Assembly: GCF_949628265.1 (NCBI RefSeq)
Contig: NC_088789.1
Coordinates: forward strand, 14,934,886 to 14,998,885
Direction: 5' to 3'
Length of the DNA: 64,000 nucleotides
Source: Cloeon dipterum
Lineage: Eukaryota; Arthropoda; Insecta; Ephemeroptera; Baetidae
Below are positions 26,462 through 29,400 of this stretch, in pieces. Made by a program: the position numbers and the translations under genes. How positions within the stretch are numbered: position 1 is the stretch's first letter; the number at the start of each line of letters is the position of its first letter. The notes beneath the pieces are model-generated. The model was not told the DNA's origin. It saw only the letters and a list, made by a program, of their open reading frames with translations, and did not search any database.

Positions 26462-29400
26462 CTAGGCTACACCCCCACCTGTCGGGCTGGCTTCGCCCCC
26501 CGTCGGCACTGATTCCGCCGCAACCGATGAGCCTGCTTCCACAGGGGCAACGCTTGGCCCTGCCGCCCCTCCCGACCGTTCCTGCTGGTAGTTCGGGATC
26601 AGCTCTGCATTCAGCTGTGGCTGGATTGACAATTCTGAAACACATGAATAACAATGCTATTATTACCGCTGTTCAAGGCAAGGATTAATTTATAGAAAGT
26701 TGAAACTTTTACGTCTACTTGAACATCATTACTTCAGACTCTTCCAATACCATTTAATCAATCAGCAAATAAATATTTATAGGGTTCTATTATATATTAG
26801 TTGATTGATAGGATGGAATAATTCTTAACGATTTAAGACGCAATTTTACATTTTAATTAACAATTTTATTGAAATATAAAAAAATTCTGTTAACCGAATA
26901 GTTTTATATTTAATATTTTTTGTATTTTTACGATAATCCAAATTGTTCAAGAAATTGAGAATTTATTGTAATGGCTTGCACGATTCAGGAGATACACATA
27001 TCGTCAATAGTATCTTACGTAGCAAGGACAAAAATAGCCGATTAACTAAACACAGAAGACTAGTCATTGTTTTCTTAAAATTACCTGTGTGGCAAGTGGC
27101 GATGAAAATTGGACTTACCATGTTCAGTGAAATTAAAGAGAGGGGGTAGTTCCCTGCCATTGGGCAGACGTGTGTTAGGCTCCCTGAGCTCATTGAAAAA
27201 GCTGTGGGCGCACGCCTGAAGTGGCGAGATCCGAGACCCAGGCGTGTACTCCAGCAGCCGGGACACTAGGTCGATTGCTTCTGCTGGCGTTCGCGTTCGG
27301 AACACCTGCAACAGGCAAATAATTTCCCATCAGTCGATGCATCGTGCGTTCGGCTGCTACGCGCAGAAATCAGTTAGTACGAAAGAGGTGAAGACACAAT
27401 TGTGGACGAGTAGTACTTCAATGCACTCCGTTAAGGCTTTCGTCCACAACTGTGTTTTCACCAATACTTCAGCATTTTCCTTTGCCAGTGTTAAGATGTG
27501 TAGTCCCACCAGAGCTGGTCTGCAGTGAAAGTGATTCCAGAGGCCAACTAAGGCGTGCTTTGAAGTTATTAAAAATACGATTCTGCAGGGTCAGTCAGTG
27601 GCCGGCTAAATGTTCGTTCACGAGAGCGTCCGAGCGAATTGAAGCACAAACAAGCACATGACAACAGTGATTATTAGGAAAAAAAGATAAAAATTGGGGT
27701 TAATCTCTGAGCAAAGAGTCAGGATTCCATCAAGTCAACAGTACTTTGGTTAACAAGGAGTTGGTGGCCCTAAACTGTCAGGCCAACAATCGAATGTCAC
27801 GCCATTAATCAGCAGGACTCTTCACAAGAAATCCATTCCGTAATCCAAATAAAAGAGGAAAATCCGAACCAAATAAACAAAAGTCATTTGCGAGGGAGAA
27901 GGGAGTCGACTGTGCTTGGTTGTGGATACTCACTCGGATGCGCTGGTGCTCGGTGGTGCTTTTGGGCATGGACATTCTTTCGAGCATCAGCTGCAACGCC
28001 AAAGACACGGTCAGTTGTGCCTCTTAACATTATTAGCTCAAAGCTCTCTAACCAGGTCAACGTGGATGCACGTTTATGGCCGTGCACAGTATTCAAATTC
28101 ATATTAGGTTTAAGTATGTTTTAGGATAGAAATAACTGAACAATTTTTGCAAGCTGATAAGTCCCTAAAATATGCGAATAATCATAAGATTATTTTGAAT
28201 TATCGTGTCCAATAAGAAGACTAACTTTGGCACAAAATTTGTTCATTATTTTCTCTAATTAAGTAATTTTTAAATGCATTTATTTACATCAAACAAAGTT
28301 CCCGTCTGTAATGAGAGCAGAGTGAGAAAGCTCGCCGCCATCTCCGACCCCAAACAAAAGCCCCTTCCCTTCTCACTAACAACAACAGTGGTGGTGTTCC
28401 TCGCTCTCTTTCAGAGCACTTCAAAGACAACTTGTCTAGACTTTTTCTCTTTCTCACCTTCTGCCAGGGATGCGATTTTATCTGGGGGAACTTGAACTCG
28501 GTGTAATTGGGATTCATCTCTCGTATCTGCTCTCGCGTGGGGGTGCCCAGCACCTTGATGATTTCCACCAGCTGGTCCACGCCAGAGTCGCCCGGGAAGA
28601 TGGGCTGGCCTAGCAGGAGTTCAGCCAGCACGCACCCTGCGCTCCACACATCTGCCGCAAATAAAAACAGGTGAGTGAGCCGCCGGCCGGGATCTAGGTG
28701 CAGTCGAACGTACCGATTTTGGTGGTGTAGTCGATAGCACCAAAGATGAGCTCTGGGGCGCGGTAGTATCTGGAGCAGATGTAGGAGACGTTGGGCTCGG
28801 CCTTGACCAGGTGCTTTGCTGAGCCAAAGTCGCAGAGCTTGAGCACCCCTGTTTCAGGGTCAAGTAGAAGGTTCTGTGGTTTAATATCCCGGTGGCAAAT
28901 TCCAAGTGAGTGGATGTATGCCAGGCTACGGAACAACTGGTACATGTACAGCTTTATGAAGCTGATTGGGATCGTCTGCTTCGATTTACTGCAAAAAAGG
29001 ACGATAATCAGTTGACTTACGTAATTCATCTGATCTAGACTATTTAATTAACAGAATCAGGACTTCCTAGTCAGCGTATAGTTCAGTTTGTGACTAGATT
29101 AGCAAATTTTTTATGACTTGGCAACTTGACAGGAACTAAAAGCGAATGATCTAATTTTGTGAAAAACAATCAATCAATACCAATAGTTGCGTCTTGGTGG
29201 ATTAAACCCAACTTTGAATCAAGATAAACATTAATATCAGTGCTTCATGTATGAAATTAGGGGGTGCAAAATTGGAGCGGGAGGAAAAATTTGATTCACA
29301 CCTGTAGTGGCGCGCCACTTTGTAGACCGTTTCAGGAATGTACTCAAGCACCAGGTTCAAGTACACTTCATCTTTCTGTGAGCAGAGAGAAGGAAAGCGA

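What the first reader, a model, noticed from the sequence alone, without database searches (positions are those of the whole stretch)
27934..27990. In-frame 57-nt microexon candidate in GSK-3 at the mammalian GSK3B insert position
Seen directly: a good acceptor, 19 stop-free codons in phase 0, and a near-consensus donor. It lies in the intron between the exon ending SHPWQK and the exon starting VFRTRTP. Established: mammalian GSK3B has an alternatively spliced 13-residue insert at exactly this junction, enriched in neurons, and that insert also ends in Arg before VFR. The peptide is unrelated in sequence. Either an ancient optional exon has diverged or the same surface loop gained an insert independently.
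Basis: partly seen in the sequence, partly recalled or inferred. Interest (0 to 1): 0.7.

Follow-up and report, generated by a model that had tools for sequence, protein, structure and literature searches.

The report
Possible optional exon in insect-like GSK-3
A 57-base stretch inside a gene for the signalling kinase GSK-3 looks like an optional exon that would add 19 amino acids at the spot where mammals add a different 13, but only RNA data or related genomes could prove that it is used.

Summary
Minus strand 27990-27934 reads [19 protein letters not shown] in phase 0 between a TTGCAG acceptor and a CGA|GTGAGT donor, in the 1152-nt intron between ...SHPWQK and VFRTRTP. Against human GSK3B the insert falls exactly between K303 and V304, the region of the published GSK3beta2 insert. 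Chance is not excluded. Sites this good around an open frame are expected 0.056 times per such intron; requiring the coding score too leaves 2 hits in 537,526 presumed non-coding nt, one being the candidate. A fairer summed score finds 30 other segments as good (18 distinct, at least 3 real exons): 0.03-0.065 per intron. The open frame runs past both splice sites and the coding-like composition past the donor. The peptide is not demonstrably related to the mammalian insert. At 57 nt it is long for a microexon and shows few hallmarks of fly neuronal microexons. No RNA and no arthropod relative could be searched. Best reading: a probable cassette exon (0.55), more likely a lineage-specific gain at a tolerant surface site than a conserved ancestral exon; the main rival is a chance pseudo-exon.

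The parts
27934..27990 (-). candidate cassette exon, 57 nt, phase 0, [19 protein letters not shown]
27991..28011 (-). acceptor region of the candidate, ACCGTGTCTTTGGCGTTGCAG; previous AG about 30 nt upstream; CTGAC at -24
27928..27933 (-). donor GTGAGT after CGA
28458..28651 (-). upstream constitutive GSK-3 exon ending ...QIKSHPWQK
27119..27305 (-). downstream constitutive GSK-3 exon beginning VFRTRTP; donor GTAAGT after 27119
27306..28457 (-). 1152-nt host intron; by inspection of the printed sequence the longest of the introns between the kinase-domain exons and the last exon

Best explanation
A probable in-frame cassette exon of lineage-specific origin. Skipping it gives the canonical GSK-3 kinase; including it adds 19 residues between the positions equivalent to human K303 and V304, in a C-lobe surface segment just after the loop that (recalled) forms the Axin/FRAT docking groove. 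Inclusion would be expected to leave catalysis intact and alter scaffold or substrate choice, as reported for mammalian GSK3beta2. Shown: location, phase, splice-site and coding-like scores. Inferred: that it is spliced, that it is regulated, its origin, and what it does. The case of shared descent with the mammalian exon is counted apart, as a rival.
For: Sites and phase-0 frame are there. Only one other segment in 537,526 presumed non-coding nt matches it on acceptor, donor and coding score together. The coding score is phase-specific and is reached by 1.5% of 27,571 sampled stop-free non-coding 57-mers; it lies within the range of ten held-out 57-mers of three constitutive GSK-3 exons (-2.7 to 12.2). 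The insert falls exactly at K303/V304; in pig a 39-nt optional exon lies between exons 8 and 9 and gives a 13-residue kinase-domain insert, also known in human and mouse (PMC3391277 passages), and the long form is more abundant in brain than in other tissues (PMC3397315 passages). The sequence was found once in the genome, so it is not a repeat fragment.
Against: By summed score 30 other segments, 18 distinct, do as well in 536,216 nt, so chance is not excluded. The open frame extends past both splice sites and the coding-like composition past the donor. The splice sites are middling (26th and 42nd percentile of 62). No RNA or animal relative was available. The 20-residue peptide has no match in Pfam or PDB.
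Confidence: 0.55

Rival explanations
1. A chance pseudo-exon: an AG and a GT around an open stretch in a long intron with a local GC-rich patch, never or only accidentally spliced.
For: Expected 0.03-0.065 per intron of this size by summed score, so a few are expected in any 64-kb window read on both strands. The coding-like patch ignores the donor boundary. About a third of site pairs of suitable length are open (26 of 79).
Against: On all three measures together only one other segment in 537,526 nt matches it, and it lies at the junction of this kinase known in mammals to take an optional insert.
Confidence: 0.38
2. The ancestral bilaterian GSK-3 optional exon, shared with mammals and diverged in sequence and length.
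For: The insert falls at the mammalian insert's place and keeps the frame (PMC3391277 passages). The genome encodes an SRRM_C domain, the likely eMIC machinery (that identification is recalled).
Against: No significant peptide similarity (5.4% of 2000 shuffles score as high); 19 residues against 13. Fast turnover of fly eMIC exons among insects, with only 4 at positions shared with mouse (PMC8797185 passages).
Confidence: 0.05
3. An alternative terminal exon giving a truncated kinase: read-through from 27990 to the stop near 27805.
For: The frame is open to 27805.
Against: No AATAAA or ATTAAA in the downstream intron; coding score of 27933-27808 is -11.7.
Confidence: 0.02

Closest known systems
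Mammalian GSK3B exon 8b (also called 8A, recalled), isoform GSK3beta2
   Same: Insert between the residues of HPW(T/Q)K and VFR, in frame, optional (if this one is spliced)
   Different: 39 nt and 13 residues against 57 nt and 19; no significant sequence similarity; tissue bias untested here
eMIC/Srrm234-dependent neuronal short exons of Drosophila (PMC8797185)
   Same: Short in-frame exon candidate, UGC next to the acceptor, below-median acceptor, SRRM_C domain present in the genome
   Different: No long AG-exclusion zone, no UCUC tract, 57 nt; UGC also at constitutive acceptors of this gene

Membership tests
GSK3B exon 8b-type cassette | insert falls between residues equivalent to K303 and V304 (place of the mammalian insert recalled to the residue), in frame | tested here: met
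GSK3B exon 8b-type cassette | length 39 nt, 13 residues | tested here: not met
   57 nt, 19 residues; published length in PMC3391277
GSK3B exon 8b-type cassette | peptide similar to the mammalian insert (recalled sequence) | tested here: not met
   alignment score reached by 5.4% of 2000 shuffles
GSK3B exon 8b-type cassette | spliced in optionally, enriched in brain | not testable with these tools
   no RNA data
Neural eMIC-dependent microexon | very short exon (recalled limits 27 or 51 nt) | tested here: not met
   57 nt
Neural eMIC-dependent microexon | UGC near the 3' splice site, UCUC tract, long AG-exclusion zone, strong CUAAY branch point | tested here: inconclusive
   UGC present but also at the constitutive acceptors at 28988 and 27305; no UCUC in the last 60 nt; previous AG about 30 nt upstream; CTAAT at -46 and CTGAC at -24; features from PMC8797185
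GSK-3 kinase (host gene) | kinase domain closely matching GSK3B | tested here: met
   best PDB match GSK3B, E 9.3e-202

The most novel reading that the evidence does not exclude
GSK-3 has one insertion-tolerant site next to its scaffold-docking groove where optional exons have arisen independently in vertebrates and in this arthropod-like lineage, giving a second, scaffold- or substrate-shifted kinase isoform in both.
Probability: 0.3. Interest if true: 0.6.

Novelty: new member of a known kind. Interest (0 to 1): 0.33.

Why it matters
If spliced, it would show that the same surface site of a central signalling kinase was opened to optional exons at least twice. That would make the poorly understood role of mammalian GSK3beta2 testable in an invertebrate in which only one GSK-3 gene was found. 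If it is a pseudo-exon, it is ordinary.

Tried and rejected
Relatives: genome contigs and viral contigs were scanned with the upstream exon. Of 202 pattern matches in genome contigs 2 encode a relative, in contigs labelled bacterial, 56% and 40% identical, probably eukaryotic contamination and not arthropod; of 10 in viral contigs none does. The genome tool states that it holds no relatives of this genome.

Repeat origin: rejected; exon DNA and peptide were each found once. Second GSK-3 copy: none seen; the listed hits outside this gene are at most 55% identical (best candidates only). Alternative terminal exon: disfavoured. Known RNA: no Rfam match at gathering score in the window, one weak chance-level hit in the intron.

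Literature: ten searches were made; those aimed at an invertebrate or any GSK-3 microexon or insert showed me no report of one at this junction in an insect. I saw listings, and passages only in eight papers (PMC5561119, PMC3391277, PMC7339944, PMC8797185, PMC6621911, PMC6540023, PMC9916465, PMC3397315). The library holds open-licence papers only, and figures and supplements were not searched, so this is weak. PMC6540023 says Drosophila shaggy has 17 annotated transcripts and 10 isoforms; the passages seen do not say whether any differ here, so a known fly counterpart is not excluded.

The home-made gene model is crude. It merged neighbouring genes and did not predict GSK-3 as a gene, so only its splice and codon scores were used, and 'non-coding' means not predicted by it or by the long-ORF list; unpredicted real exons remain in the null (GSK-3's own were masked, not). 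In one search the printed labels are shifted: 'ss+open' counts lengths divisible by 3 (79) and 'ss+open+3' counts open frames (26). In one search the first four held-out values and the e4 composition were in the wrong phase; one search corrects the held-out values.

Full report
Observation. The minus-strand segment 27990-27934 was read directly. It is CTGATGCTC...ATCCGA, 19 codons, [19 protein letters not shown], with ...GGCGTTGCAG before it and GTGAGT after it. The host intron runs from 28457 to 27306 (1152 nt), between the exon ending SHPWQK (last base 28458) and the exon beginning VFRTRTP (first base 27305). Both junctions are phase 0, so inclusion or skipping keeps the frame.

Host gene. 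The joined exons give a kinase whose best PDB match is human GSK3B (E 9.3e-202). That alignment opens a 19-residue gap exactly between human residues 303 (K of HPWTK) and 304 (V of VFRPRTP), the only gap before the C-terminal tail. The genome search shows one such gene; the listed hits outside it are 55% identical or less. The exon DNA and the peptide were each found once in the 190-Mb genome.

Chance. I trained splice matrices and a codon model on 31 sequences, 296,109 nt (the window, 20 arbitrarily placed 10-kb stretches, 10 loci of the kinase search), with the GSK-3 gene left out of that training. The final set held 62 predicted introns. The candidate's acceptor scores 4.0 and its donor 4.7, the 26th and 42nd percentiles of those 62. 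Its coding log-odds are 5.2 in phase 0, -0.65 and -3.9 in the other two; 1.5% of 27,571 sampled stop-free non-coding 57-mers reach that. Ten held-out 57-mers of three constitutive GSK-3 exons range from -2.7 to 12.2, 3 of 10 above 5.2, so the candidate looks like this gene's exons on this measure.

Counting every acceptor-donor pair 30-120 nt apart with both sites at least as good in 537,526 presumed non-coding nt gives 243 pairs; 79 have a length divisible by three, 26 of these are open, and 2 of these also reach the coding score per base, one being the candidate itself. That is 0.056 open pairs and 0.004 coding-like open pairs per 1152 nt. Thresholds set at the candidate's own values flatter it. 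By summed score (both sites above zero, 21-150 nt) it ranks 31st of 5361, with 30 better segments in 536,216 nt, 18 distinct by my count. Peptides of 14 of these 18 were long enough for Pfam (the other 4 are under 20 residues); 3 of the 14 match known domains and are taken as real exons: an alpha-1,6-fucosyltransferase SH3 segment (Pfam score just under its cut-off, PDB match E 5e-11), an EF hand and a protein kinase. This leaves at most 15 false ones, about 0.03 per intron, or 0.065 if nothing is merged or removed.

Points against. The frame is open from 28023 to 27805. Of 383 stop-free 57-nt windows in the intron the candidate ranks 13th; the 12 better ones overlap it in the same frame, the best starting at 27957 and running over the donor. 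So the coding signal is centred here but is not bounded by the splice sites. No RNA evidence or related animal genome was available. The only hits to the neighbouring exon in genome contigs are diverged kinases in two contigs labelled bacterial.

Comparison with the mammalian insert. [quoted passage not shown] Neuronal restriction is not strict: in pig the isoforms were detected in all tissues examined except skeletal muscle. PMC3391277 also cites studies in which GSK3beta1 phosphorylates tau and MAP1B better than GSK3beta2 in vitro. The exact residue of the mammalian insert and its peptide are recalled. That peptide aligns to the candidate with a score reached by 5.4% of 2000 shuffles, so homology is not shown. 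In flies, of 157 genes with eMIC exons, 19 have a mouse orthologue with such an exon and only 4 share the position, all but one favouring convergence (PMC8797185, passages); the main text of that paper holds none of the words sgg, shaggy or GSK3 (supplements not searched). The prior therefore favours independent gain. Drosophila shaggy has 17 annotated transcripts and 10 isoforms (PMC6540023, passages); whether any differ at this junction I could not learn.

Is it a neuronal microexon? At 57 nt it is long for one. [quoted passage not shown] Here the previous AG is about 30 nt upstream, no UCUC occurs in the last 60 nt, CTGAC lies at -24 and CTAAT at -46. UGC abuts the acceptor but does so at the constitutive acceptors at 28988 and 27305 too. 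The acceptor is below the median. The genome encodes one SRRM_C match (35.1 bits, cut-off 27), so the machinery may exist. The result is inconclusive, leaning against.

Mechanism, inferred. Position 303/304 follows the loop that, from recalled structures, lines the Axin/FRAT groove. A 19-residue, slightly basic, Ser/Thr-containing insert there should bulge from the C-lobe and bias scaffold or substrate binding without touching the active site. The sequence SMPKS fits the S-x-x-x-S spacing of GSK-3 sites (recalled), but such motifs are common by chance. No structure was predicted.

Verdict. An actual cassette exon is somewhat more likely than not (0.55 lineage-specific, 0.05 shared with mammals), helped by the coincidence with the junction known to take an insert. 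Interest is modest until RNA or relatives are examined.

Noticed in passing
window 27387-27462 (minus strand of the same intron): A 23-nt inverted repeat, 91% complementary with 30 nt between the arms, folds with its flanks to -41.2 kcal/mol (z -5.2). Found once in the genome, no Rfam match: a microRNA-like hairpin or relic of a small mobile element about 80 nt upstream of the VFRTRTP acceptor.
   Followed up: partly
window 10572-10613 minus strand: The only other segment that matched the candidate on all three scores ([14 protein letters not shown]); perhaps an unrecognised short exon.
   Followed up: no
window about 31409-31501 minus strand: Frame reading [14 protein letters not shown]...MKISSK, which looks like the GSK-3 N-terminal exon with the Ser9-type site (motif recalled), so the whole gene seems to lie in the window.
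   Followed up: no
window 19823-20200 +, 23400-24390 +, 32485-32943 +, 41288-41404 +, 45785-45892 +: Neighbouring genes: guanylate kinase, leucine-rich repeat protein, PH-domain protein, alpha-1,6-fucosyltransferase, EF-hand protein.
   Followed up: partly
L036:10001-10198 and L037:10001-10159: GSK-3-like kinase segments in contigs labelled Desulfosporosinus and Chlamydiae MAGs (56% and 40% identity), probably eukaryotic contamination.
   Followed up: no
G000:C1:20434834-20434980 (L038): SRRM_C domain match (35.1 bits), likely the C-terminal eMIC-type exon of Srrm234 (that identification is recalled).
   Followed up: partly
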